A stretch of 22,503 nt of DNA from a virus, in IMG/VR virus record IMGVR_UViG_3300022885_000084, positions 1-22,503 of that record; one strand, 5' to 3'. Below, piece by piece: positions 1-19,852 of this stretch (position 1 is its first letter; every line of letters starts with the position of its first letter). A model generated the notes under the pieces. The model was not told the origin of the DNA, ran no database searches, and saw only the letters and a program-made list of their open reading frames with translations. The translations under genes were made by a program, and so were the position numbers.

Positions 1-625
1 CTCCAATAACACTATCTGCTATACAAATATAAACATTATTTAATTGACCAGCAGTTGTAGATTTAATCATATCTCTAATAGCATAAGCTGCTGTAGTTGT
101 TGTTGCGTCTGTACCTTGATATGTACCAAGTTCTTGTGTTACTGAAATTTCTCCAGAAGCATCAAAGGCTAAAATTTTATTTGCTCTATCTGTTGCACCT
201 ACAGTAAATTCTGTAGAAGTCATTGTGTTCGTTCTTGATAATTTTATTGATCTATCTGCTTGTTCTTGTTGTTCTTGTAATAAAGCTAAATTTTTATCAA
301 ATGCACTTTCAACACTATCAGCAGTAAATGGATCATTTTCTACTAAATCTAATGCTTGTGTTAATGTAGTTGATCTTCTTAAAATAACTGTTTCAGTTGC
401 AGAAGGTATTGCACCAGCTTCAAATACAACATTACCACCAGATGCTTCTCCAGCACCTGTTACTGTATAATGAGTAGTTAAAGTTTTAACAGTTTCAGCA
501 CCTGCCGCAGATCGGATAATAACCTGCATATCTGCCGTAGTAGATATCTTAAATTGATACGCAAAGGTATCATTACTAGCATCACCAGAATAACTGTTTT
601 TAATTATAGTTGTACTAATTGTCAT
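1..625 (-). CDS. Tail fibre or tailspike protein, N-terminal part (runs off the window)
   Basis: The first 208 codons are visible, starting at the ATG whose A is also the last base of the stop of the upstream 2308-residue gene (TAATG, coupled translation). The reading frame is open to the window edge. Residues about 75-130 contain ILRRSTTLTQ, VENDPF, a Glu-Ser-Ala-Phe-Asp stretch and LLQEQQEQADRSIKL. This pattern is typical of the N-terminal virion-attachment domain of T7 gp17-like fibres and podovirus tailspikes. The region after residue 150 looks like the start of a different domain, probably shaft or receptor binding, which cannot be judged here. Position after the gp16-like gene matches the T7 order. 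The role as the host-recognition fibre is inferred from family and position. Confidence 0.8.
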   Translation of the reverse strand, partial: MTISTTIIKNSYSGDASNDTFAYQFKISTTADMQVIIRSAAGAETVKTLTTHYTVTGAGEASGGNVVFEAGAIPSATETVILRRSTTLTQALDLVENDPFTADSVESAFDKNLALLQEQQEQADRSIKLSRTNTMTSTEFTVGATDRANKILAFDASGEISVTQELGTYQGTDATTTTAAYAIRDMIKSTTAGQLNNVYICIADSVIG

Positions 626-3600
626 TATTCTTCTACCTTATCACCTTTAGTTTTCTTTTTAAAGTTAAGATTTACTTTATTATCAGTTTTTCTAATAAAA
701 TCAATTAATCCTAACATCATCATTGCTTGTTTTTTCTTATCTGTTTCTGCCACAAACTCTTGTAATAACACATTACCACCAGTAGTTTTAGCTAATAATT
801 CTAATAGTAAAGGATTACTTTTTAAGCTATCCCTTCTTAATTGTAAAGCTTCTAAATGTTTTGCTTCTAATTTTTCTGATTCTCCATTTATAATATAAGC
901 TAATGCATCTTTAGCATCTATTGTAATATTAGCCATTGTCTTGTCATAGTCTTTTACATAAGAATTCATAGCTGTTTTTGCTGGATGACTTCCTATTTTA
1001 ACAAATCTACCTAATACTGTACCTACTATTGGATAACCTAATATTTCTTCTAATTGAGTTTGAACACCTACTAAATCTCTTTTTTTAAATTTATAAAAAC
1101 CTTGTCCAGTATATGAATTCATAAACCATTTAGCAATTTCAACATCTCTTTTCCAACCACCTGCTTTATCTAAAGTTTGATCTATAGCACTTGTTCCTCT
1201 AAAATCATCATAGGGTGTTTTACCACCCATCCATGTAACTAAATCAGCTATTAAACTAACAACAGGATTTACATTTGGTAATCCACTTGTTCCTAAAAAT
1301 GCAGCCATTTCACCAGCACCATCTGGCTCTCCCATTAATTGTTTATCATCATTAAGGCTCATTATTTTATACATTGTAGAAGTTAATACTCTAGCAGATT
1401 CATCTTGTGGTATTCTAAAATATACTGATCTGCCTTCATCATCATAACCTAATGGTATAATAATATAATTATCTCTATCCCATTTATTTACTCCATAAAA
1501 AAATGCAGCAACAGGTGCACCAAATGCACCTACTTCCAATGCTTTTTGCAATACTTTTGGTAATACATTGTATGCTATAAATTTTGAACTAACAGACCAA
1601 GGGGATTCTGCGGCTCTAACAGCTGTTGATCTCCAACCTTCTTTAAAAGCATTTAGATATAGTAATAAATTATTTGTTACTTGGTTATATTTACCTTGTC
1701 TTAAAAAAGATGGATGACCATAATCTCCTTGCATTCTTAAACCCATTTCTCTAGTAGTCATTTTTATTTCACCTCTTTCTATTGCATCTTTAATATACAT
1801 AGCAGATGCAATTTTAGGCATCCTAGCAATAGCTCTTGCATTATCTCCTAAAAATCCAAAGAAACCATTTACACCAAATATTTCATCATATAATTCATGG
1901 AAAGTACCTTGCATTTCTTTATAAGATTGTGTCTTTTTATCCCATTTTTTTACTTTACCTTTACCATCATTCCATCTTTTCATTAATTGTTCTAACATGA
2001 AAGTATCTTCATCAATTCCAAGCCTTGTAGCTTTTTGTCCAGCTTGTCCTCTGTAACCTTCAATAGAAGATATCAACATACTTTCATCTTCCATCATACG
2101 AGTTAATGGTGTTCCATTTTTAAAGATAGAACTGTATGCAGGTCTTACTGATTTATATAAATATTTAAGATATGAATGTTTAAATCCACCTTTTATATCT
2201 AAATAACTTGCACCTTCCAACATAACTACTGTTCTATTAGAATCTCTAACTAAATCCACAGGCCAAAATGCAGGGTTATATTCAGTAAATGCTTTTCTCA
2301 TAATTTCACCACTTAAACTTAATGCTCTTGTAGATAATCCTGATGTTAATGGACTACCATCAAATAAACCTGCTGCCCATTTATTAATATAGTATGTTTG
2401 TAATTCACCATTTTTCATATAGTGAAAAGGAACCATATCTTTTGGTGGTTTTTCAAATTTATTTTTACCAATAGCTTTAGGCTTCATAATAACTCTATCA
2501 GTTTTTGAACCACCCCAATTCCACAAACCTTTTCTATTTTCTAAATCTTTTTTATTTTCTTTTACCCACTCAACTAAAGATGACATTGCTTTATGTCTTC
2601 TTGCTTCAATAATTAAAATCATATCTGTTTCTACAGTAGCTTCATAAGGATTTCTTGTCATACTAAATGTACCTTGTGACTTACCTATAAAACTTGTAGC
2701 TGATGCATTTTCACCATATTTTTCTAATCTTGTTAAGAGATGTTTAAGTACATCATATTTTACATAAGTAGAATTATCTCTTAATTGTTCAATAAATGCC
2801 CTATCATACATTCCAGATTCTGCTAATTCACCAACAACATATTGTTGTCTAATATCACTAAATTTTTTCATTAAAGGAATTAAATCTGGGTAAGCCTCTT
2901 GATATTTTCCCCATGCTTGTTCAATAGTTCTAACATCAAATTTACCTTCTAATTCTTTTTGTAACACTTCATTTAATTTAAAATATCCACCAGTAACCAT
3001 TCCTTCTCTTTGTTTACTTTCAAATAAATTTCTTAATTTTAAACCAAAACCAAATTCATGTAAGTTGTAACCAAGATTAACAATTTGATTATTTACTTCT
3101 GAATTTAAAGTATCACTGTATAATTTTAATTTTGATGCTCTATATCTATATCTTTCTACATTTATATTAGCTTCTTTAGCAGATGGAGAATGCCATCTAT
3201 TCCAAGAATCTCCTATTCTTCTATAGAACCAAGTCATTGAATCATAAACTTCTGCACCTAATTGGTCAAATTTATCTACTTTATATTCATTTTCTATAAC
3301 TTTCATTTTTGCAACATTGGCATCTCTAGATTCTTTTATTCCTTCATTAATAAGTTTATCAATTCTAGTGGAACCTTTAGAGTTTAAATCTATTTGGATA
3401 TCTTCATATAATCTTTTTATTTCTGGTTTTCTATCAATATGGTGAATCCACATATCAAATGTTCTAGGTGCATTTAATTTAACCCATTGTGGTTTTAACA
3501 ACCAAGCCATCATATAATCAGCAAACAATTCTCTTGGGCTATATCTATATTTTGTATAATTTACACCATCTTTATCTGCTCTTGTTGCATCAAATGGTTT

Positions 3601-6600
3601 CCATTGCATAGTTAATTTTCTTAATTCAGTCATAATAAGTTCATTATTAACCAAACCTCTATCTTGTATTTCTTTTTCAAATAATGCTTTAAATAATTTA
3701 TTAGCTTCTGCATTTAATTTAGGATCAACTTTTGTACCATTAATTCTATCTGTAATAGCTTTTAAATGACTTGACATTAAACCTTTCATTGCATCCTTAA
3801 CTACTAATTTTTTTAAAGAATCAGATAATTTAACAAAGGCTTCATAAAATAATGGATTAATATTTTTTCTTGCATTAGCATCTTGAAATATTTGTAATAT
3901 AGTTTCTGGTGTAATTTCTAATTTTTTAATTTCTGCATTAGTTTCCTTTTCTTTACTTTTTGAATACTTTTCTGATAGTTTTTTTAACTCACTTATTTCT
4001 TTTTTACTTAAAGGTTTAGCTCCATTATTTTTACCATCTATCCATTCGTTCATAAACTTTTTCATTGTAGCTAATGAACCTAAAATGTTACCTCTTTTTA
4101 AACTAGCTTGGGGTAAATAATCAATTAAATGCCCAATTTCATGTGCCAATGTCATATACAAAGCAGCAGGTGATTTCTGTAAACTTTTAGCAATAGCTAT
4201 TTTAGGTGCATTCTTTCCTTTAAATTGAAAATATCCTCTTAATGTAGGAGATAGCTTTTTAAGTTCTGGTGATTTATCTATAAATACTCTTACAAGATCA
4301 ACAAGATCAAACAAATCTAATCCTTTTGCGTCATTGTATATTCTTTGCCAAGGCATTTCTTTATGACCAGCATATGAATCAGACTTACTATAAGGATCAG
4401 GTGGTACTTCAAATGTATTACCATCTCTTGTACTGTTTGATCTATCATAATAAAAGCCTTCTGTTTTATCTTTAGATGAATATTCTCGCCAATAGTTTTT
4501 AGCTTGGTTTTCAATACTACCATCAAGTTTTTGGCTCATTAATAACCCAATAGGTTTATTTGTTTCTGGATGTAAAAATACTAATTGTGTTCCAAATTTA
4601 CTACCTTCTGTAGCAAGTAATTTAGCTTTTTTAACTTTACCATCTTTATCAGTAAATTTGGATAATATTTCATATGCCTTTCTATTAAACTGTACAAATG
4701 TATTTCCTACTCTACCTACCAATACATCTAATCTTGACAATGATCCTTTTTTAATAGCAAACATAACATCAATTTTTTTATGTTGTTCTGTAAGACCTTT
4801 AAATAATTTGCTTTTAATTTCTTTACCTGTTTTAAATAGACCTTTGTAAGCTAACTTTTCATTTTTAAGAGTATCAAAGTATTTAGCCATTTTAGGATAA
4901 AATACTTTCTCAATTAACATATGACCATCACTAACTACTGTTTTGTCAATAGTTTCTACTTTTTCTCTATCACCTAATTCTTTTAATGTTTCTGCTGGAT
5001 TAGCTTTATAAGTTGTTCCATCCTTATTGACTATAGAACCTTCTTTTTTTACTAACTCAATTATGTCTGCTTCAAACTGGCCACTTTCTTGTTTTTTTAT
5101 AAAGTCATCTTTTTTAGTTTCTTTTATTTCAATCTTGTTGTTTTCGTTAATAACAATTTCTTTTTCTACTGCATCTATTTTTCTAGCTTGTGATTCTAAT
5201 ACTTGTACAGTTTCACCATTAGGTTTTCTAACAACTAATATAAGATCACTTCCTATAGATTCTTTAGCTACTATTTTTCCTGTATCTGCACCATGAGAAG
5301 ATATATGGACATCTTCATTTAATTTATATTTAGGTGCAGGAAGTAATTTTATGTCAGCAGTTTTTTCCATTCCTTTAATTATTTTTTTATCTGCATTTAA
5401 AATAACATCAGGCACTTCACCTTTTCTTAAAGATTCTAATACTGTATGATCTGCAAGTGCAAGAGTAACCATTTGTTTAGGATGTATAGAGTATTTTCTA
5501 TAAATATTTTTTAAAGCACCAACTGATCTAATACCTGCGTGTAAACCAAATATTAAAACTGTAGCATGGGCAAAATCATTTTTAGTAGGTATTTGTCCTT
5601 CTAACAAAGCACCTAAAGTTACCATAGTAGTTATTTCAGCACCTAACCTTGCAGCTGTTGTACCAGCTTTACCTGTTAAAGTTGGCCCTAATCTTGGCCC
5701 TAATACTTTAGTAACTTTACTTCCTACACCTAATGTAGCTCCACCTATAACCGCAGCTTTTGTTCCTGTTACAGTAGTTTTAACAGTAAAAAAATGTTTT
5801 AAAAATTGTTTAAAATTAGCAACTTCTCCAGATTCTATTGCTCTCATATATGAATCTGCAATAACTGCTGGAGCAGCAAATGCACCTGCACCACAAACAA
5901 CTGGAGCTGCTACAGCACCTAATCCACCAGTAGCAGCAGCAGCTGCACCACTTGCTGCCAAACATCCACCAATCATCCAAGGTAAATCATTTGCATCTGT
6001 AACAACTGATTGTATCATTTCTCTACCAAATGTTTGTTCTTGACGCATAAAAGTTTTTCTATATATTTCTTGTACATCTTCTATTTTTAATTTCTCTCCT
6101 TTTGCTTCTATAAGTTCAATATAATCTTGATGAAAATTTTCTATAAAACCATTGACTGATAAATTGTAACCATTAGTAAATACACTATATGTTCCTTGAC
6201 CACCCAAAGCCTTTACAATATTATCTCCAACTTTAGGTATTGCTGATAATGTTTTAGTGATAATGTTATCAGATGGTAAAAATGGTAATTGACCATTTTG
6301 GTAAATGTATTTATCTGTACCTAAAGTATCTACATATTCATTAATTCTATTATTTAATGCTTCACTAATTTCATAACCTTCATCTTGGTTTTTATCTTGT
6401 AAATGTAATTTATACAATTCTTTAACTGCTTCTTTATCTTTATCTACTAAAATTTTTTTCCATAGTTCTTTATCACCTTTTTCTAACAAATGAACTAATG
6501 CTAATGATCTTTGTTGATCGTCAGTTAATTTCATCATATCCATATGTTCATGTCCTTCTTTTATCCAATCTTCTGTTATGTAATCTTTATTATTTTTATA

Positions 6601-7551
6601 CATTCTATTACTATAACTTGTTAAAGAAGTTTTCATTTGATCTTTTGTTAATTGAAAATATCCTGCTGCTGAACTATTTTCACTTTTAATATTTCTATTA
6701 TTTGATTCTAATGATGAGAACATACTAACTACTTCGTTCCCAAATTGTACATCCCAATCATTTACATTAAAATCATTTTTTGTTTGTAGTAATACAGGCA
6801 TTGTTGCTTCACCTGTTGTAGTGTTTGAGTTAAGAATTTTTACTGTAGCTTCTTTTTCTTGCTTTTTAACTAATCTTTCTTCTTCTAGTTTAAGTAATTT
6901 TTCTACTTCAATTTTTTGAAATTCATCTGGGGGTATTGTATATTTTTGTTTATCAGTATTGTAACCTACATTACCTTCAATAATATCTCTAGCTTCCATA
7001 TCCTCTAACATTTTTTTTTGATCTTCATTTAGTAATGTTTCAATTACAGTTAAATCAGAATCATCTAAAAATTTTGTACTTTCTTTATCTACATTAGGTT
7101 GATTTTTATCAAACCATTCATTTACATAACCAACTTTTCCTTCATCATTATCTTTAAATAATGTTTTTGCATTTTCATACATTAATGAAATTTGATCTTG
7201 TTCAGCTTCAATTAAGTTATTGTAATTAGTGCCATCTATATTCTTATTATGATTATCATTAATTAAATTAGTATTAATAATGTTCTCGTTTTGTTTGTTA
7301 GTTTTATTTTCTAATGCAGTATTTTTACCTAATTCTTTATGTTGAGGAAAAACATCAGAAACAGATGATGACATATCTTTAGCAGTAATAGCTTTACTAT
7401 TTTGTTGTTTAAGACCATATGCTTCATTAATATCAAAATCACTAAACCCAGCAGTTTTTAAATATTGTCTTTGATTATCTATCCAATCAACTACTTGTGT
7501 ATCATTAAAACCTGCTTGTTTAAGCATTAATGGTGTAAATCTTGTACCCAT
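625..7551 (-). CDS. Giant gp16-like ejection protein with transglycosylase-like and metallopeptidase-like segments
   Basis: This 2308-residue protein sits where T7 carries gene 16 (1318 residues), so it is nearly twice that length. Residues about 270-305 resemble a lytic transglycosylase (SLT) core, with Glu282 in LESNN and SSAAGYFQLT at 293-302. Residues about 524-570 are rich in Ala and Gly and hydrophobic, with two further hydrophobic stretches to about 680, which suggests membrane insertion. Residues 1137-1141 read HEIGH, an HExxH zinc-binding motif, and 1341-1345 read ELFAD, which fits the ExxAD third-ligand motif of gluzincins. Residues about 1740-2060 (NPAFWPVDLVRD; later a run around IPLGYDD) resemble the LPD38-type polyvalent-protein domain. 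The expected role is to be ejected with the DNA, cut peptidoglycan and form a channel. The protease role is inferred. The start lies two bases after the upstream stop, with a weak GAAGAA purine run before it. Confidence 0.85.
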   Translation of the reverse strand: MGTRFTPLMLKQAGFNDTQVVDWIDNQRQYLKTAGFSDFDINEAYGLKQQNSKAITAKDMSSSVSDVFPQHKELGKNTALENKTNKQNENIINTNLINDNHNKNIDGTNYNNLIEAEQDQISLMYENAKTLFKDNDEGKVGYVNEWFDKNQPNVDKESTKFLDDSDLTVIETLLNEDQKKMLEDMEARDIIEGNVGYNTDKQKYTIPPDEFQKIEVEKLLKLEEERLVKKQEKEATVKILNSNTTTGEATMPVLLQTKNDFNVNDWDVQFGNEVVSMFSSLESNNRNIKSENSSAAGYFQLTKDQMKTSLTSYSNRMYKNNKDYITEDWIKEGHEHMDMMKLTDDQQRSLALVHLLEKGDKELWKKILVDKDKEAVKELYKLHLQDKNQDEGYEISEALNNRINEYVDTLGTDKYIYQNGQLPFLPSDNIITKTLSAIPKVGDNIVKALGGQGTYSVFTNGYNLSVNGFIENFHQDYIELIEAKGEKLKIEDVQEIYRKTFMRQEQTFGREMIQSVVTDANDLPWMIGGCLAASGAAAAATGGLGAVAAPVVCGAGAFAAPAVIADSYMRAIESGEVANFKQFLKHFFTVKTTVTGTKAAVIGGATLGVGSKVTKVLGPRLGPTLTGKAGTTAARLGAEITTMVTLGALLEGQIPTKNDFAHATVLIFGLHAGIRSVGALKNIYRKYSIHPKQMVTLALADHTVLESLRKGEVPDVILNADKKIIKGMEKTADIKLLPAPKYKLNEDVHISSHGADTGKIVAKESIGSDLILVVRKPNGETVQVLESQARKIDAVEKEIVINENNKIEIKETKKDDFIKKQESGQFEADIIELVKKEGSIVNKDGTTYKANPAETLKELGDREKVETIDKTVVSDGHMLIEKVFYPKMAKYFDTLKNEKLAYKGLFKTGKEIKSKLFKGLTEQHKKIDVMFAIKKGSLSRLDVLVGRVGNTFVQFNRKAYEILSKFTDKDGKVKKAKLLATEGSKFGTQLVFLHPETNKPIGLLMSQKLDGSIENQAKNYWREYSSKDKTEGFYYDRSNSTRDGNTFEVPPDPYSKSDSYAGHKEMPWQRIYNDAKGLDLFDLVDLVRVFIDKSPELKKLSPTLRGYFQFKGKNAPKIAIAKSLQKSPAALYMTLAHEIGHLIDYLPQASLKRGNILGSLATMKKFMNEWIDGKNNGAKPLSKKEISELKKLSEKYSKSKEKETNAEIKKLEITPETILQIFQDANARKNINPLFYEAFVKLSDSLKKLVVKDAMKGLMSSHLKAITDRINGTKVDPKLNAEANKLFKALFEKEIQDRGLVNNELIMTELRKLTMQWKPFDATRADKDGVNYTKYRYSPRELFADYMMAWLLKPQWVKLNAPRTFDMWIHHIDRKPEIKRLYEDIQIDLNSKGSTRIDKLINEGIKESRDANVAKMKVIENEYKVDKFDQLGAEVYDSMTWFYRRIGDSWNRWHSPSAKEANINVERYRYRASKLKLYSDTLNSEVNNQIVNLGYNLHEFGFGLKLRNLFESKQREGMVTGGYFKLNEVLQKELEGKFDVRTIEQAWGKYQEAYPDLIPLMKKFSDIRQQYVVGELAESGMYDRAFIEQLRDNSTYVKYDVLKHLLTRLEKYGENASATSFIGKSQGTFSMTRNPYEATVETDMILIIEARRHKAMSSLVEWVKENKKDLENRKGLWNWGGSKTDRVIMKPKAIGKNKFEKPPKDMVPFHYMKNGELQTYYINKWAAGLFDGSPLTSGLSTRALSLSGEIMRKAFTEYNPAFWPVDLVRDSNRTVVMLEGASYLDIKGGFKHSYLKYLYKSVRPAYSSIFKNGTPLTRMMEDESMLISSIEGYRGQAGQKATRLGIDEDTFMLEQLMKRWNDGKGKVKKWDKKTQSYKEMQGTFHELYDEIFGVNGFFGFLGDNARAIARMPKIASAMYIKDAIERGEIKMTTREMGLRMQGDYGHPSFLRQGKYNQVTNNLLLYLNAFKEGWRSTAVRAAESPWSVSSKFIAYNVLPKVLQKALEVGAFGAPVAAFFYGVNKWDRDNYIIIPLGYDDEGRSVYFRIPQDESARVLTSTMYKIMSLNDDKQLMGEPDGAGEMAAFLGTSGLPNVNPVVSLIADLVTWMGGKTPYDDFRGTSAIDQTLDKAGGWKRDVEIAKWFMNSYTGQGFYKFKKRDLVGVQTQLEEILGYPIVGTVLGRFVKIGSHPAKTAMNSYVKDYDKTMANITIDAKDALAYIINGESEKLEAKHLEALQLRRDSLKSNPLLLELLAKTTGGNVLLQEFVAETDKKKQAMMMLGLIDFIRKTDNKVNLNFKKKTKGDKVEE

Positions 7552-7552
7552 A

Positions 7553-9409
7553 TTATTCTTCTTTCGGTGTAATAATAAAAGAACTCATATCTAAAGAATC
7601 AGTTACAAAATTACCCGTTCCCCATTCTGGTAAATATTTATCTTTATTATTTTTAGTAACTTTTTGTACTCTTTCAATATATGAAAAAACACTTTCTCCT
7701 TCATTTTTTGTAGGTAATTGTACTGATGGTGCATCAGAACTTTTACCAGAAAAGTATTTAGTTGTATCAAATGAATAATCAAAACCACCTTTTGTAATTG
7801 CTGATACAGCTAATTGTTCATCTGCACTTAAAATTCCCATCCAATCTTTAACAACTTCTTCTTTAACTCTAGATTTATAAACTCCTATAAGATCGTTTAA
7901 AATATAATTAGGACTTTTTTCATCCATTAACATTTCTTTAATACTTATATTTTTACTTTCACCTTCTGCGACCATAGCAAACATTTGGTTCATTGCAGCA
8001 TATACTTCTTTAGGCATTTTACTATCTGATAAAAGTTGAGATAACATATCAGCAGAATTTATTTGTGTACCTTTGTCAAAATTGTCTAACATTCCTTGAA
8101 GATTAAAATCATCAACATTTAATTCTTTTGCTAATACACTTACTGCATTTTTAGTTACTGCTTTTTTCCATTGATGTCTTTCTTTAGTATTTTCTTTAGC
8201 ATTATTTAATAATGTAGTAGCATATTCTGGTTTTATATGACCATCAGCCATTGCATTATTAATAATAGCATACTCTCCTTTTGTATCAATAAAACCACCA
8301 TTAACTAAATAAGTCAATGTTGCTTTAACTTGTAAACCAGTAGGACTTTCATGTGTAGCTGTTCCACTAGCAAGATTATTTAATGTTGTATTGTATGCTG
8401 TTTTGAATGTTCTTTTAAGTTCTGGTGATAAACTAGCATCTGCTTCTAAATCTTTAAGAAAATTCTTACTATATTCAATTCCTTTTACTGAATTAGAAGC
8501 TATAGCTATTAGTTGATTAGTAAAAGTTTCATTAGATACTAATTGTTTTGCATCTTTTCTACTATCATATATAGCTTGTTGTGTAGTTGATTTTTCTTTT
8601 GCCCAGCTTAATAAAGATTCTTTTGTATCTTTTGGCATAGTTTTACCAAAATATTCTTGTGTAGATTTAGTTGAATTTAATTCATTATAGATTGATTTAT
8701 AATCAACTTCTTCTAATCCAGTCATATCATCTACATAATTTTTATCAGCTGATATTACTTTTTTCCATACTTTGTCTTGTATCATTTTTAAATGAGATTC
8801 ATAATCAACTGGAATTCCTAATGCGTCAGCTCTTATAAATCTTTCTTTTTCTTGTTTAATTAGTAATTCTGTTGACATCCAAATATTAGGAGTAACAGGT
8901 TGATTATCTAAATTTGTTGTAAATTCAGCATTAGTAGAATTAAAATTCATTTGTGCTTCTGCTAATACTTTTCTTCTTCTTGTAGTTCGCATAGTTTGTG
9001 AACCATTATTAATAACTGTGTATAAATCAGATTTCCATATAGCAAAGGCATCATCATCATTTTTGTAAATTTTTTTATATTTATCTTCTAATTTTTTAAC
9101 TCCAGAATTATAAACTCCATTATAACTTTCCATTGTTCCATCCGTAGAAAGTTTTGGATTATCATTAATATTTTCTAATAATAAATTAATATCACCTTGT
9201 AAATTTGCTTTATTAAGTGTATTTTTATTATCTACTCTTTGAGCTTCAATTTTATTACTATGTGCGGCAATTTTTTGACCAATAAAGTCTAATGTATTAG
9301 TTACTTTATCATAATCAATTTTATTACTTTGAACAGCACTCAACATACTGCTACCTCTATCTCCAACAGAAGGTGCTGCTATTTCACCTCTAGGTATTTT
9401 TATTGCCAT
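7553..9409 (-). CDS. gp15-like internal virion (ejection) protein
   Basis: This 618-residue hydrophilic, mostly helical-looking protein has no catalytic motif I can name. Its place between a gp14-like gene and the gp16-like giant, and its length (T7 gp15 is 747 residues), support a gp15-like core protein that is ejected into the periplasm with the genome. The start is well supported: GAGGAAGTAA lies just before the ATG. The gene begins 20 bases inside the 3' end of the preceding 63-residue gene and ends one base before the next start, so all three are likely made from one message. The identification rests on position and size more than on sequence. Confidence 0.7.
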   Translation of the reverse strand: MAIKIPRGEIAAPSVGDRGSSMLSAVQSNKIDYDKVTNTLDFIGQKIAAHSNKIEAQRVDNKNTLNKANLQGDINLLLENINDNPKLSTDGTMESYNGVYNSGVKKLEDKYKKIYKNDDDAFAIWKSDLYTVINNGSQTMRTTRRRKVLAEAQMNFNSTNAEFTTNLDNQPVTPNIWMSTELLIKQEKERFIRADALGIPVDYESHLKMIQDKVWKKVISADKNYVDDMTGLEEVDYKSIYNELNSTKSTQEYFGKTMPKDTKESLLSWAKEKSTTQQAIYDSRKDAKQLVSNETFTNQLIAIASNSVKGIEYSKNFLKDLEADASLSPELKRTFKTAYNTTLNNLASGTATHESPTGLQVKATLTYLVNGGFIDTKGEYAIINNAMADGHIKPEYATTLLNNAKENTKERHQWKKAVTKNAVSVLAKELNVDDFNLQGMLDNFDKGTQINSADMLSQLLSDSKMPKEVYAAMNQMFAMVAEGESKNISIKEMLMDEKSPNYILNDLIGVYKSRVKEEVVKDWMGILSADEQLAVSAITKGGFDYSFDTTKYFSGKSSDAPSVQLPTKNEGESVFSYIERVQKVTKNNKDKYLPEWGTGNFVTDSLDMSSFIITPKEE

Positions 9410-9583: not shown

Positions 9584-10156
9584 TTATACTGTAGTTTTAC
9601 TTGTTGAATAAGCATTGGTCATTCCACTTAATAAACTAGTTTTTCTATCCCATGATTCTTTTGCTAATGCACCTGCAAGTCTTACATCCATAGTTCTTAA
9701 ATCCATTTCTACACCTTTATCTATCCAAAATAAAGTATCTTCTAAATTTTCTATAACACTTTCTTGTTCCATTAAACTTGAACCTGAAAATTGTATTCCT
9801 CTTGCACCAATAGTAGCTCTTTTTTCACTTAATAATTTTGCAGCTTGTTTATTAGCCATAATAGTATCTTGTGTTTTTTTAATGTTTAAATGGTATTGAT
9901 CCCATGCCGCAGCTGCTTTTATTTGTTTAGACTGTTGAAGGCTTCCCATGTAAGACATTCCTGTACTTAAAGCCATCATTCCTGCAACTATGTACATTGG
10001 ATTAAAAGAAGGTATTCCTGTTTCTTTAACTCTTTCTCCAGAACCACCTAAATTTTTTAATATTTGTTCTTCATCTTTATTAATGTATGCAAGAAACTCA
10101 CCTTTAGGTGCATATTGTTCTAATAATTTTTTAGCTTCTATTATTTTATTATTCAT
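9584..10156 (-). CDS. gp14-like internal virion protein
   Basis: This protein of about 190 residues has a short N-terminal tail. A hydrophobic segment follows (FNPMYIVAGMMALSTGMSY), then a long helical region with AAAAWDQY and GARGIQFSGSS. This pattern matches T7 gp14-type internal virion proteins, which insert in the host outer membrane at the start of DNA ejection. It directly follows tail tubular B, as in T7. I take the ATG at 10156, one base after the tubular B stop. A GTG at 10165 in the same frame would add three residues and overlap tubular B by eight bases. Neither start has a clear Shine-Dalgarno sequence, so coupling to upstream translation is likely. Confidence 0.8.
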   Translation of the reverse strand: MNNKIIEAKKLLEQYAPKGEFLAYINKDEEQILKNLGGSGERVKETGIPSFNPMYIVAGMMALSTGMSYMGSLQQSKQIKAAAAWDQYHLNIKKTQDTIMANKQAAKLLSEKRATIGARGIQFSGSSLMEQESVIENLEDTLFWIDKGVEMDLRTMDVRLAGALAKESWDRKTSLLSGMTNAYSTSKTTV

Positions 10157-10157
10157 A

Positions 10158-12623
10158 TTAATCACTTGTTACTAATGTTCCTGTTATACCTAAAACTGTC
10201 ATAGGTAGTGGTTGTGTTTGTTCAATTTCTATTTGACCATCTCTATTCCATCCTAGATTACTTACTCTTTTATCTCCAGTAAATTCTGCTATGTCTTGCC
10301 CCATTGGTGTAGAAGATGATCTAAAAGGTATTTGATCTCCATTAACAGTTAAACCTACACTTTTATATAATCTTACCACAACTTCATTATATCTTTTTTT
10401 CCTTGCTTGTGCAGTACCTGCTTGTGATCCTGATTCAATTCTCATAGTTTTAATTTTAGATGTATAACCAAGGCCAATTTCAATACTTTTAAAACTTGCT
10501 GATGTAGGTAGTGTAACACTAATACTACCCCCTGTAACTGTTTGATTTGGAAATACTGCATCTCCTACTAATACTTGTACGGATTCCCCTTCAAGATGGT
10601 TTAATCCTGTTACTACTGTTAGTCCATCATTTACTAATGCAGATAATGTACAATCCATATTTAATGTTGGGTCTAGATATTCTATGTATTGTCTTTTAGT
10701 ATCATTAATTCTTCTTTCGCATATTATCCAAACTTGGTTTTCAAGTGTTTCATTTATTGAAGTTATACTTTTTATTTTAGCTTTTGTTGATAAAGAGTGA
10801 CTTGCACCAATACCATCTGATATTCTTTTAATTGTTCTATCTACTGCTTGTGCATAAGTATCTGCTAGTTCTAATGTATTAGCATCTCTAGCAAAAACAT
10901 AATATGTTCCACCTTCTGTTAATTCTGGTATTTTAGTTCCACCACCAGCACTATAAGTTACTTCATCTCCTGTAGATAATCCATGTGCTGTTATAGTAAT
11001 GTATCCATTAAAATTAGCATCATTAAGATAATCAAGAACTCCAGTTGCACCATTAAATATAAATTTATTAGAACCACCAAAAATATGTCTATGCCATGCA
11101 ACAACATCTTCTTCTCTATGGTATGTCATTCCTAATAATGTTCCATCAGTTCTTGCAGCCCAATAAATAGAATCTGGCTCTTGTGCGTAATCAACATCAA
11201 CAATTCCTGTATCTGTTATATGTTCAGCAAGTAATGTCATATCTGGTGCTTGATATGCATCATCTTCAAAACGATATGCAAATGATCTAACTTTTCTTTG
11301 TTGTCTTTGTACAAATAAAACTTCACTACCTATTTGAATTGGTTGTGTTGTATATCCGCCATATGTAGTTTGTTGTGCAATATTAACATTGTCGGGCTTT
11401 AGAGGCTCACCAGCAGGTCTTCCAACTTTAAATTCACCACCAACAGTACCTACAATTAAATCTCTAGAAGGTGCTAACCATCTAATAACATTTACTTTGT
11501 TGGCTGCTATTGTATAAATAAATGCATCTGCTGCACTTCCATCTCCTACATCAAATTCTTCATATAAACCAGATTCACTTGCCCATATAGTTTGAGGATA
11601 ACTTGATGACCCCCCAAATACTAATCTTTGTTCAAAAAATGATACTGTTCTAGGATAACCTGTTGTTGCAGACCATGCTCCTAATGACCAAACCGCAGCC
11701 CCTGATCCTGTTGCAGCTACAGTAATAGTCCATGTTACAACAGTTGTGCTAGTTCTCGCTGTAATTTCTCCCCATCCATCTCCTAATTTTACCAATCTAC
11801 CTACATCAGTAGTTTGAAAACCAGTTCCACTATTAATTCCCGTTATAGCAGATGCTGTTAAAGTTCTTCCCGTTCCTACTGTTGTTGCACTTGTTGTTAG
11901 TGTTGTTGCTGTTGTATTTGTATCAAGAAAAGGGCCAACTTGAAAATCAACATCATCTAAAGTCCATGTTGTATGAGCTGTTCTTGATAATTTTGCAGGG
12001 GGATGATTTGGATGTACAATATACATAACATCTGCTGATTGTGTAAATTGTAATTCACTTAATTCTGCTGATGTATATGTTGTTGCTATTTCATATGTTT
12101 TAGATGCAGTTCCACCAGAACTATAAGCATCATAACTTGTGCTATCTTCACCAGTTAATTCAAATGTATTAGTTGTAGAACTTGCAACTGTAAATCTTCT
12201 TCCATTAAGTCTAGTCATTCCTACTACACCTGCAATCCAGACATCATTTCCATTTGAAAAACCATGACTAGTAGATGTAACTACAGCAGGATTAGCTGCT
12301 GTAATAGCTGTTATAGTTTTTGCAGCTTCTGTTATTTGACCATTATCTTTTAAAAATCTTATATAATTGTTTCCAAACTCTAAAACATATGCTTGTGTAA
12401 TATTAAACTCAAAAGAAATTAATCTAGTAATTGCAGTTGAATCTTTTACTTCACAAACAAATCTACTTCCATTTCTTCTTGACACTCCACCTTGTGGAAA
12501 TACTGTCATGTTTTCAAGTGTTTCTACACCATTGCTATATTTTTTAAAATCAACTTGACCAGCAAGTTTAGGTGTTAATTCTCCAGCAGTAAAGTTGGTT
12601 TGGAAAGGATGTACTCTAGCCAT
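10158..12623 (-). CDS. Tail tubular protein B (nozzle)
   Basis: This 821-residue protein forms the distal tail tube of podoviruses (T7 gp12-like). The N-terminus, with NFTAGELTPKLAGQVDFKKY and then NMTVFPQGGVSRRNGSRF, is diagnostic. Other family landmarks are RLVFGGSSSYPQTIWASESG near 333-352, a long conserved run around VNVIRWLAPSRDLIVGT at 377-393, the WHRH motif at 510-513 and RQYIEYLDP at 644-652. Two similar beta modules, about residues 105-180 and 537-612, interrupt the core and resemble the FCCH-type insert seen in some phage tail proteins. The start overlaps the tubular A stop by one base (TAATG). Assignment is strong; the function of the inserts is unknown. Confidence 0.93.
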   Translation of the reverse strand: MARVHPFQTNFTAGELTPKLAGQVDFKKYSNGVETLENMTVFPQGGVSRRNGSRFVCEVKDSTAITRLISFEFNITQAYVLEFGNNYIRFLKDNGQITEAAKTITAITAANPAVVTSTSHGFSNGNDVWIAGVVGMTRLNGRRFTVASSTTNTFELTGEDSTSYDAYSSGGTASKTYEIATTYTSAELSELQFTQSADVMYIVHPNHPPAKLSRTAHTTWTLDDVDFQVGPFLDTNTTATTLTTSATTVGTGRTLTASAITGINSGTGFQTTDVGRLVKLGDGWGEITARTSTTVVTWTITVAATGSGAAVWSLGAWSATTGYPRTVSFFEQRLVFGGSSSYPQTIWASESGLYEEFDVGDGSAADAFIYTIAANKVNVIRWLAPSRDLIVGTVGGEFKVGRPAGEPLKPDNVNIAQQTTYGGYTTQPIQIGSEVLFVQRQQRKVRSFAYRFEDDAYQAPDMTLLAEHITDTGIVDVDYAQEPDSIYWAARTDGTLLGMTYHREEDVVAWHRHIFGGSNKFIFNGATGVLDYLNDANFNGYITITAHGLSTGDEVTYSAGGGTKIPELTEGGTYYVFARDANTLELADTYAQAVDRTIKRISDGIGASHSLSTKAKIKSITSINETLENQVWIICERRINDTKRQYIEYLDPTLNMDCTLSALVNDGLTVVTGLNHLEGESVQVLVGDAVFPNQTVTGGSISVTLPTSASFKSIEIGLGYTSKIKTMRIESGSQAGTAQARKKRYNEVVVRLYKSVGLTVNGDQIPFRSSSTPMGQDIAEFTGDKRVSNLGWNRDGQIEIEQTQPLPMTVLGITGTLVTSD

Positions 12624-17749: not shown

Positions 17750-18178
17750 TTATATCCATTTACATTCTTCTTTTAACATACCAAATACAGCTGCATCAAC
17801 AAATTCATTATCAATTTTCATAACTTGTCTTATGACACCTTCTTTAGTCCATCCAGTTCCAGACAAAATTCTTTCATTGCGTTTAAAGCCATTTTTACAA
17901 ACAGCTGTCATTCTTCCACAATTAATTTGTCTAAAACCATAGTCAAAAACATATCTTATATGCTTTCTAGTAAATAATCTAGGACTTTCTAAAGCTAAAT
18001 GGACATAAATATTATGACCATCAAAATCTGTAAAAAGAAAACCACCTAATATTTTATTATTTTCTATAAATCCAATATATGAAAATTGATCTCCTATATC
18101 AGCAGATATATGACATTTTTTTTTAAGATACTCTCCAATTGGTTTCCGCCAACTGTCGTCAGTAACTGTTTCAATCAC
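17750..18178 (-). CDS. GNAT-like acetyltransferase-family protein
   Basis: This encodes 142 residues. The layout (residues around FSYIGFIENNKILGGFLFTDF, a central IYVHLALESPRLFTRKHIR, and a C-terminal GWTKEGVIRQVMKIDNEFVDA followed by FGMLKEE) resembles the GNAT fold of small phage proteins in the same position in many podoviruses. The classical acetyl-CoA pyrophosphate loop (Q/R-x-x-G-x-G/A) is not obvious, so activity is uncertain. The frame opens with GTG, directly after the stop of the upstream gene (TAAGTG), without a Shine-Dalgarno site, so translation is probably coupled. Target unknown; it could modify a virion or host protein. Confidence 0.75.
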   Translation of the reverse strand: MIETVTDDSWRKPIGEYLKKKCHISADIGDQFSYIGFIENNKILGGFLFTDFDGHNIYVHLALESPRLFTRKHIRYVFDYGFRQINCGRMTAVCKNGFKRNERILSGTGWTKEGVIRQVMKIDNEFVDAAVFGMLKEECKWI

Positions 18179-18433: not shown

Positions 18434-19852
18434 TTAGTTAAACACGTTAAATTCAGAATCAGTTTGGAATTGCATAGGCTGATAGTTTTTAATTCTTGCT
18501 TTTCTTAATGACATAACACAATATCTCATTGCAGATATTACATCATCATGTGCAGGAACTATTTTACCATCTTTTCTATGATACATCCTTAATTCTTCTA
18601 ACAGTTTACTTTGATTTCTAAAGATTTTCAACCTTTTAGTTTGCATTCTTGTTAATATTTCCATAATACCTGCTTCTACAGAATTTCCACCACTTCCTTC
18701 TTTCATTCCATTTGAAGGTGGATTACTAAAATGATCTCTTAACATATTAACACTTTCTCTTTTATATTGATCTGTAAGATTTTTTCCCGATCCTTTATCT
18801 GCTTGTCTTCCATCCATAGGCCATACTACAGGAATCCATTTACCTCTACCATTTATAGCAGATGCATGAACGGGTACTGTTTCTTGCCTCATAGCATAAC
18901 AATCATAAATATATACAATATCAGTATCTCTATCCCATGTTATCCAGACAACAGCAGTAGGGTGATCCCATCCAAAATCTATTCCACACAATCTGGGCCA
19001 ATGAGTAGGTATATCTATAGGATCGCATAATATATCTTCTTCTACTATTGGGAATACTAAACCAGAACCTAATTGTGGAATACCTCTTTCTCTCATTTTT
19101 CTTTCGTGTGGTGGTAATGCAGATAAAATTTGTTCTCTAATTTCTTTAGTCATGTGAGGTGCATCATCCCAACCTGCTGTAATTAATGCTTGACCTTCTT
19201 TTAAATTATTTACAAACTGTGCAACTGTTTCTGTCATCCCTTGTTCTGGAGTAAAAGTCATAAAAACAATGCCACCTTTATCAGCTGTTCTTGTTAATGA
19301 TTGTGAATATATACCTTGTGGTGGTTCTTCATCTAGCCAAACAACATCAACTGCTTCACCCATCCATTTTTCTTTACCCATATCATAAGATTTAAAACCT
19401 ATTCTAGAATAATTGCCAGATTTATGTTTTACCACTAATGAACTTAATGCATTTGGTACACCAGCTTTTCTAACTGTGTTTCCAATATCCTTTAAGGGAA
19501 TAGAGCCTGTGCCAAACGCAGATGGATCATCTGGCTGACCAGTAAGTTCTTTTTGACAGACATCCCTTGTAGTTTCATTTGAAACTCCCCCGACCCATAT
19601 ACGAACTGGTCTATCAAATTTTCTGCCTTCCCACCATGCAGGGTATTTACCTGTAGCATGATATGCAATTTCCATTGCCCCACTAAAAGACTTACCGACC
19701 CTATTTCCCGCCATTAATAATCTTTGTGTTGCTTTAGAATTATGAAATTTTTTTTGGTAGTCATAAGGAGCATATCGTTCTAAACGATTAGTGGATTCTC
19801 TCCTTTCTAATTCTTTTGCTATATGTACAGCTTTTTCTAAAAGGTCTTCCAT
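18434..19852 (-). CDS. Terminase large subunit
   Basis: This 472-residue ATPase-nuclease packages DNA. Residues 48-55 (AGNRVGKS) are the Walker A motif, and VVWLDEEPP (170-178) is Walker B with the catalytic Glu. The coupling region VFMTFTPEQG is at 196-205. The nuclease domain shows GIDFGWDHPTA at 290-300 (first metal Asp) and HDDVISAMRYC at 435-445 (last metal Asp). The ATG directly abuts the stop of the 55-residue gene upstream (TAAATG). Unlike T7, where the terminase lies after the fibre gene, the gene here lies upstream of the portal, as in BPP-1-type and HTVC010P-type phages. The last is from memory of those families. Confidence 0.95.
   Translation of the reverse strand: MEDLLEKAVHIAKELERRESTNRLERYAPYDYQKKFHNSKATQRLLMAGNRVGKSFSGAMEIAYHATGKYPAWWEGRKFDRPVRIWVGGVSNETTRDVCQKELTGQPDDPSAFGTGSIPLKDIGNTVRKAGVPNALSSLVVKHKSGNYSRIGFKSYDMGKEKWMGEAVDVVWLDEEPPQGIYSQSLTRTADKGGIVFMTFTPEQGMTETVAQFVNNLKEGQALITAGWDDAPHMTKEIREQILSALPPHERKMRERGIPQLGSGLVFPIVEEDILCDPIDIPTHWPRLCGIDFGWDHPTAVVWITWDRDTDIVYIYDCYAMRQETVPVHASAINGRGKWIPVVWPMDGRQADKGSGKNLTDQYKRESVNMLRDHFSNPPSNGMKEGSGGNSVEAGIMEILTRMQTKRLKIFRNQSKLLEELRMYHRKDGKIVPAHDDVISAMRYCVMSLRKARIKNYQPMQFQTDSEFNVFN

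What the first reader, a model, noticed from the sequence alone, without database searches (positions are those of the whole stretch)
3517..4143. Metallopeptidase-like HEIGH plus ELFAD signature inside a giant ejection protein
Residues 1137-1141 are HEIGH within LYMTLAHEIGHLIDYLP, a hydrophobic context typical of zincins. About 200 residues later YSPRELFADYM supplies an ExxAD-like third ligand. T7 gp16 has no such domain that I know of. A protease delivered into the cell with the DNA could clear a host or virion protein. The two motifs are seen; activity is inferred.
Basis: partly seen in the sequence, partly recalled or inferred. Interest (0 to 1): 0.65.

Follow-up and report, generated by a model that had tools for sequence, protein, structure and literature searches.

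The report
Protease domain in a phage protein
A 2,308-residue protein of a phage related to one that infects the ocean bacterium Pelagibacter carries what looks like a working zinc-protease domain, fused to a constant tail end while the front end varies between relatives; such domains are already known in 'polyvalent' phage proteins, so this is a well-supported new member rather than a new kind.

Summary
Confirmed. HEIGH (residues 1137-1141) and ELFAD (1341-1345) lie in a 2308-aa ORF (625-7551, minus strand) of a virus contig whose terminase is 90% identical to that of Pelagibacter phage Baldr. Both motifs are intact in 46 of 46 loci found with patterns lacking HExxH, and in 12 of 12 found through the C-terminal region alone. 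The motifs lie 73-222 residues apart in relatives: the window's 204-residue gap holds an insertion that compact relatives lack. The predicted model (pLDDT 85) is a zincin core: helix, three strands, HExxH helix, inserted helices, Glu helix. The best structural matches are zinc proteases, led by the lethal-factor protease domain. The domain is the best conserved part of the protein. It forms a constant module with the following ~900 residues, while the N-terminal part varies (muramidase-like, DdrB-ParB, ART/GGDEF, helicase, RadC). This is the zincin domain described in phage polyvalent proteins (Iyer 2017). Most likely it cuts its own giant protein during maturation or after delivery; a host-directed effector is second. 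Activity, target and packaging are inferred. 'T7 gp16-like' holds by position only. New member of a known kind.

The parts
625..7551 (-). giant protein, 2308 aa, carrier of the domain
   Evidence: full-length homologue in phage Baldr, 34% identity over 100%
3397..4329 (-). zincin-like metallopeptidase domain, residues about 1075-1385
   Evidence: alignment A6, AlphaFold2 model pLDDT 85.3, pTM 0.74, structural matches to zinc proteases over model 20-321
4129..4143 (-). HEIGH, zinc-binding His1137 and His1141, general base Glu1138
   Evidence: invariant in 46/46 and 12/12 loci not selected on it; on model helix 69-86
4120..4122 (-). Asp1144, three residues after HExxH, predicted active-site residue of phage-type polyvalent MPTases
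   Evidence: invariant in 96 sequences; described in PMC5512222
3601..4086 (-). region between the two motif helices, mostly inserted helices, residues about 1156-1317
   Evidence: model helices 97-258; gap between motifs is 73-222 residues across relatives
3517..3531 (-). ELFAD, Glu1341 = predicted third zinc ligand
   Evidence: Glu invariant; on model helix 280-293
6367..6768 (-). muramidase / lytic-transglycosylase-like domain, residues 262-395 (ES-NRNI...AxGxFQ)
   Evidence: Glu, Gly and Gln invariant in 14 sequences; best PDB profile hits are phage endolysin gp144 and its lytic transglycosylase entry, E 0.14, not significant
5482..5994 (-). Gly/Ala-rich hydrophobic region, residues about 520-690
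   Evidence: sequence; shared with a Manatee Spring podovirus protein, E 6.6e-38
628..3354 (-). conserved C-terminal region, residues 1400-2308, constant partner of the metallopeptidase
   Evidence: part 1720-2060 found in 95 of 102 distant metallopeptidase proteins; weak LPD38 match, E 0.058, below Pfam cut-off
7553..9409 (-). 618-aa protein in the position of T7 gp15
   Evidence: gene order as in Baldr
9584..10165 (-). 193-aa gp14-like internal virion protein (weak)
   Evidence: phrog_418 internal virion protein, E 0.008
10158..12623 (-). tail tubular protein B
   Evidence: phrog_376 E 8e-193; 76% identical to Baldr
18434..19852 (-). terminase large subunit
   Evidence: phrog_2 E 9e-40; 90% identical to Baldr

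Best explanation
Residues about 1075-1385 are a catalytically competent zincin-like metallopeptidase of the kind found in phage polyvalent proteins. Zinc is held by His1137, His1141 and Glu1341, with Glu1138 as general base and Asp1144 nearby. The domain and the ~900 residues after it are a constant module to which different N-terminal domains are fused in different phages; here the front carries a muramidase-like domain. The protein is made late with the virion proteins, is probably packaged and delivered with the DNA, and the peptidase most likely cuts the giant polypeptide itself, either while the virion matures or once in the host, to separate the front domains from the C-terminal part. 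Shown by computation: motifs, conservation, fold, modularity. Inferred: zinc, catalysis, packaging, self-cleavage and its timing.
For: Metal ligands and general base conserved without exception in sets not selected on HExxH. Model has the zincin core order helix, 3 strands, HExxH helix, Glu helix at high confidence, as Iyer et al. define it. Zinc proteases lead the structural comparison: lethal-factor protease domain Z 8.1 over 130 residues spanning model 20-321, PPEP-1 5.6, SPRTN 5.5, abylysin 5.2; other rows match mainly the inserted helices. Highest invariance of the protein (30-40% of residues against about 15%) and lowest dN/dS, 0.21 against 0.34-0.57. Module: C-terminal part present in 95 of 102 distant proteins, N-terminal parts in at most 7; HExxH lies 870-1245 residues from the C-terminus in nearly all complete proteins while the N-terminal length varies from about 460 to over 2600; the front carries ddrB-ParB, ART, GGDEF, SNF2 helicase/methylase or RadC. 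A constant protease beside changing partners fits processing in cis. Precedent: phage P1 DdrB is processed to 76 kDa before packaging, attributed to its own MPTase (PMC5512222).
Against: No activity, zinc or cleavage site is shown. N4 virion RNA polymerase, with an MPTase, is packaged uncut (PMC5512222). Z near 8 is at the level that unrelated folds can reach, and Foldseek gave no hit below E 0.001 in the PDB. A constant module could equally be a packaging or delivery signal whose protease acts elsewhere. No direct evidence that this protein is in the virion.
Confidence: 0.55

Rival explanations
1. Host-directed effector: the peptidase is delivered into the cell with the DNA and cleaves a host protein (defence, transcription or envelope factor).
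For: Iyer et al. keep this open for polyvalent MPTases; relatives carry other likely host-acting domains such as ART; the best structural match is a host-protein-cutting protease domain.
Against: The domain sits mid-protein in a fixed partnership with the C-terminal region in phages and MAGs from very different hosts, and is better conserved than the front of the protein, unlike a typical host-adapted effector.
Confidence: 0.22
2. Packaging or delivery domain: the fold is needed to load or thread the protein through the virion, as the MPTase region is for N4 virion RNA polymerase, and proteolysis is secondary.
For: Constant MPTase-C-terminal module; N4 precedent.
Against: A purely structural role does not explain why exactly the metal ligands and general base are the invariant residues.
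Confidence: 0.12
3. Virion maturation protease acting in trans on scaffold, capsid or other internal proteins.
For: Gene lies in the structural module.
Against: Relatives with the same head genes but without the domain exist: HTVC010P-type pelagiphages with related tail tubes gave no match, so capsid assembly of this type does not need it.
Confidence: 0.08
4. Chance HExxH or a dead relic of a peptidase.
For: HExxH occurs by chance in 3% of shuffled versions of so long a protein.
Against: Full conservation of the four catalytic positions across deep divergence, confident zincin model.
Confidence: 0.02

Closest known systems
Zincin-like MPTase domains of phage polyvalent proteins (Iyer et al. 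2017, PMC5512222)
   Same: Core of helix, three strands, HExxH helix and Glu helix; Asp three residues after HExxH; [quoted passage not shown] fusion in giant phage proteins to lysozyme, ParB, ART, GGDEF, helicase domains.
   Different: No Pfam, PHROG or NCBIfam model claims the clade above its cut-off level as far as listed; which of the 12 published clades it falls into could not be tested because the supplementary tree is not at hand.
Pelagibacter phage EXVC032P Baldr WDQ27601.1 (hypothetical protein)
   Same: Full-length homologue, same gene order, same motifs at the same spacing.
   Different: 34-37% identical overall although the terminase is 90% identical; annotated only as hypothetical.
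Phage N4 virion RNA polymerase and phage P1 DdrB MPTases
   Same: Giant or large virion-associated proteins with HExxH MPTase (PMC5512222; HELVH at 2228 and HELGH at 872).
   Different: No significant sequence similarity to this clade.
Anthrax lethal factor protease domain (M34), PPEP-1, SPRTN and minigluzincins
   Same: Best structural matches over the core.
   Different: Z 5 to 8 only, 12-19% identity, no insertion of this size.
Phage T7 gp16
   Same: Position in the gene order; a muramidase-like domain in the N-terminal half (from general knowledge, gp16 has one).
   Different: No homology found to any region of the giant protein; no metallopeptidase in gp16.

Membership tests
Zincin-like MPTase of phage polyvalent proteins | HExxH on one helix and a Glu on a following helix | tested here: met
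Zincin-like MPTase of phage polyvalent proteins | core of N-terminal helix, three strands, two C-terminal helices | tested here: met
   model helix 21-32, strands 37-39, 47-50, 58-62, helices 69-86 and 280-293
Zincin-like MPTase of phage polyvalent proteins | phage-type clade: Asp three residues downstream of HExxH | tested here: met
   D1144 invariant
Zincin-like MPTase of phage polyvalent proteins | phage-type clade: His at the end of strand 2 | tested here: inconclusive
   some relatives have His after the second strand; the window and its nearest relatives do not at the aligned place; strand register not checked residue by residue
Zincin-like MPTase of phage polyvalent proteins | fused to unrelated enzymatic domains in one polypeptide | tested here: met
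   relatives carry ddrB-ParB, ART, GGDEF, SNF2, RadC; in the window only a muramidase-like domain, itself sub-threshold
Zincin-like MPTase of phage polyvalent proteins | delivered with the DNA | not testable with these tools
   gene position only
Pfam metallopeptidases SprT-like, M48, M78 | match above the family's curated cut-off | tested here: not met
   window domain: SprT-like 12.5 bits against 25.6; members match best SprT-like 6e-6 and M48 1e-6, none for the window at E 0.1 with the shorter domain
Metzincins | HExxHxxGxxH/D | tested here: not met
   HEIGHLIDYLP: Asp in place of Gly and Pro in place of the third ligand, conserved
T7 gp16 internal virion protein | sequence homology | tested here: inconclusive
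   no match by profile or BLASTP; distant homology not excluded
LPD38 (PF18857), C-terminal region | match above Pfam cut-off | tested here: not met
   13.9 bits, cut-off 27

The most novel reading that the evidence does not exclude
The metallopeptidase-C-terminal module is a general self-releasing carrier of podovirus-like phages: a constant virion-loading end with a built-in protease that cuts loose whatever N-terminal cargo is fused to it once inside the cell, comparable to the cargo release of polymorphic toxins.
Probability: 0.25. Interest if true: 0.75.

Novelty: new member of a known kind. Interest (0 to 1): 0.42.

Why it matters
Giant phage proteins of unknown function are common in the sea. 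This one links an abundant marine phage group to a protease module with a testable active site, found in over 190 virus contigs but, in tblastn searches with several queries, in only one of 50,697 named phage records (Baldr). Baldr is in culture, so whether such proteases process the virion's own cargo, an open question since 2017, becomes directly testable.

Tried and rejected
Pfam, PHROGs and PDB scans with the single protein gave no domain. A first structure prediction with 4 sequences failed (pLDDT 40); only the 96-sequence one is used. Foldseek against the PDB gave no E below 0.001, probably because of the inserted helices; its predicted-virus library gave two pieces of one close homologue at 49-50% identity. 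Homology to T7 gp14, gp15, gp16, P1 DdrB and N4 virion RNA polymerase was tested and not found. Profile of the C-terminal region was too diverse for a collection scan, so one diverse member was used instead. Papers on ejection proteins with metallopeptidases: none held. Bcep22, relative of a virion-associated DarB-like protein with LT and LPD38 domains (PMC9144972), could not be fetched, so whether it carries the same peptidase is untested.

Full report
What was checked. The window is a 22,503-base virus contig. The minus-strand ORF 625-7551 encodes 2308 residues; HEIGH is at 1137-1141 and ELFAD at 1341-1345, at the coordinates given. Upstream genes are terminase, portal, scaffold, capsid, tail tubular A and B, a weak gp14-like protein and a 618-aa protein in the gp15 position. 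The nearest named phage is Pelagibacter phage EXVC032P Baldr: terminase 90%, tail tubular B 76%, giant protein 34% identical over its full length.

More than chance. HExxH appears by chance in 3% of shuffled versions of the protein, with a suitable Glu motif in 1%. Conservation is what counts. Searching with the domain found 46 virus loci through patterns that do not contain HExxH; all keep HExGH and the Glu motif. Twelve loci found only through the C-terminal region also all keep both. A wider search reported 196 virus loci (80 kept) and 15 in bacterial MAGs, mostly Planctomycetes, Verrucomicrobia-group and other uncultured lineages. In 96 aligned domains the invariant positions are H1137, E1138, H1141, D1144, E1341, A1344 and P1362; for the motif residues this is partly by construction because members were filtered on the two motifs. 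Across four diverged full-length proteins, residues 1141-1380 are 30-40% invariant against about 15% elsewhere, and dN/dS between the window and its 92% relative is lowest here, 0.21.

Fold. In compact relatives the Glu motif follows HExxH after only 73-82 residues; in the window the gap is 204. The two motifs therefore belong to one core and the window's version has a long insertion. The 96-sequence model is confident (mean pLDDT 85.3, pTM 0.74; core blocks about 95) and shows a helix, three strands, the HExxH helix, inserted helices and the Glu helix. The best structural alignments are zinc proteases that span both motifs: lethal-factor protease domain Z 8.1 (130 residues, rmsd 3.3), PPEP-1 5.6, SPRTN 5.5, abylysin 5.2; rows without a zinc-protease link mostly match only the inserted helices, 118-240. 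These Z values are moderate, and the claim rests on fold, motif and conservation together. Sequence profiles point the same way: SprT-like, M48 and M78 families are the commonest weak Pfam matches of the members, and snake-venom metalloproteinase, Ste24 and BepA lead the PDB profile search.

Architecture. The region 1720-2060 is present in 95 of 102 distant proteins that carry the peptidase, whereas the N-terminal regions are found in at most 7. HExxH lies at a nearly constant distance from the C-terminus while the N-terminal length varies widely. The front end carries a muramidase-like domain in the window group, and ddrB-ParB, ART, GGDEF, SNF2/methylase or RadC domains elsewhere. A Manatee Spring podovirus has a 1282-aa protein sharing the N-terminal and hydrophobic parts without the peptidase, and HTVC203P has the muramidase-like domain at the end of a separate protein, so the parts are exchanged.

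Mechanism. Iyer et al. 2017 (PMC5512222) describe exactly such domains as the commonest in phage polyvalent proteins and propose processing of the polypeptide, with P1 DdrB as a processed example and N4 virion RNA polymerase as an unprocessed one, or action on host proteins. The constant protease-C-terminal module with varying partners favours processing in cis. The timing, and whether the protein is in the virion, are not shown here; a DarB-like giant protein with LT and LPD38 domains is virion-associated in Burkholderia phage JC1 (PMC9144972), which is an analogy only.

Relation to known families. The domain meets the fold and motif definition of polyvalent-protein MPTases. It is not a member of SprT, M48, M78 or the metzincins by their defining features. 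No significant link to T7 gp16, P1 DdrB or N4 virion RNA polymerase sequences was found.

Noticed in passing
window 625-7551 and 18434-19852: Against Baldr the terminase is 90% and tail tubular B 76% identical but the giant protein only 34%: the putative delivery protein diverges far faster than the rest.
   Followed up: partly
L007 5529-8432: In Pelagibacter phage HTVC203P the muramidase-like domain sits at the C-terminal end of a separate 964-aa protein, not fused to a peptidase.
   Followed up: partly
L006 7455-11297: Manatee Spring podovirus protein (annotated 'type I restriction enzyme methylase') shares the N-terminal motif and hydrophobic region, E 6.6e-38, but lacks the peptidase.
   Followed up: partly
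L049 and L050: Relatives carry GGDEF domains, and L050 an ART-PolyVal domain, in the same giant protein.
   Followed up: no
L056 492-11240: 3583-aa protein on a Parcubacteria MAG contig with ART, Eco57I methylase and SNF2 helicase domains ahead of the peptidase; probably phage DNA binned with the MAG.
   Followed up: no
window 17750-18178: Small protein in the packaging module in the place where Baldr has a gene annotated as putative acetyltransferase.
   Followed up: no
window residues 1-50 of the giant protein (7402-7551): Two near-repeats of an AGFxDxxI-type motif at the N-terminus, also seen at the N-terminus of distant relatives.
   Followed up: no
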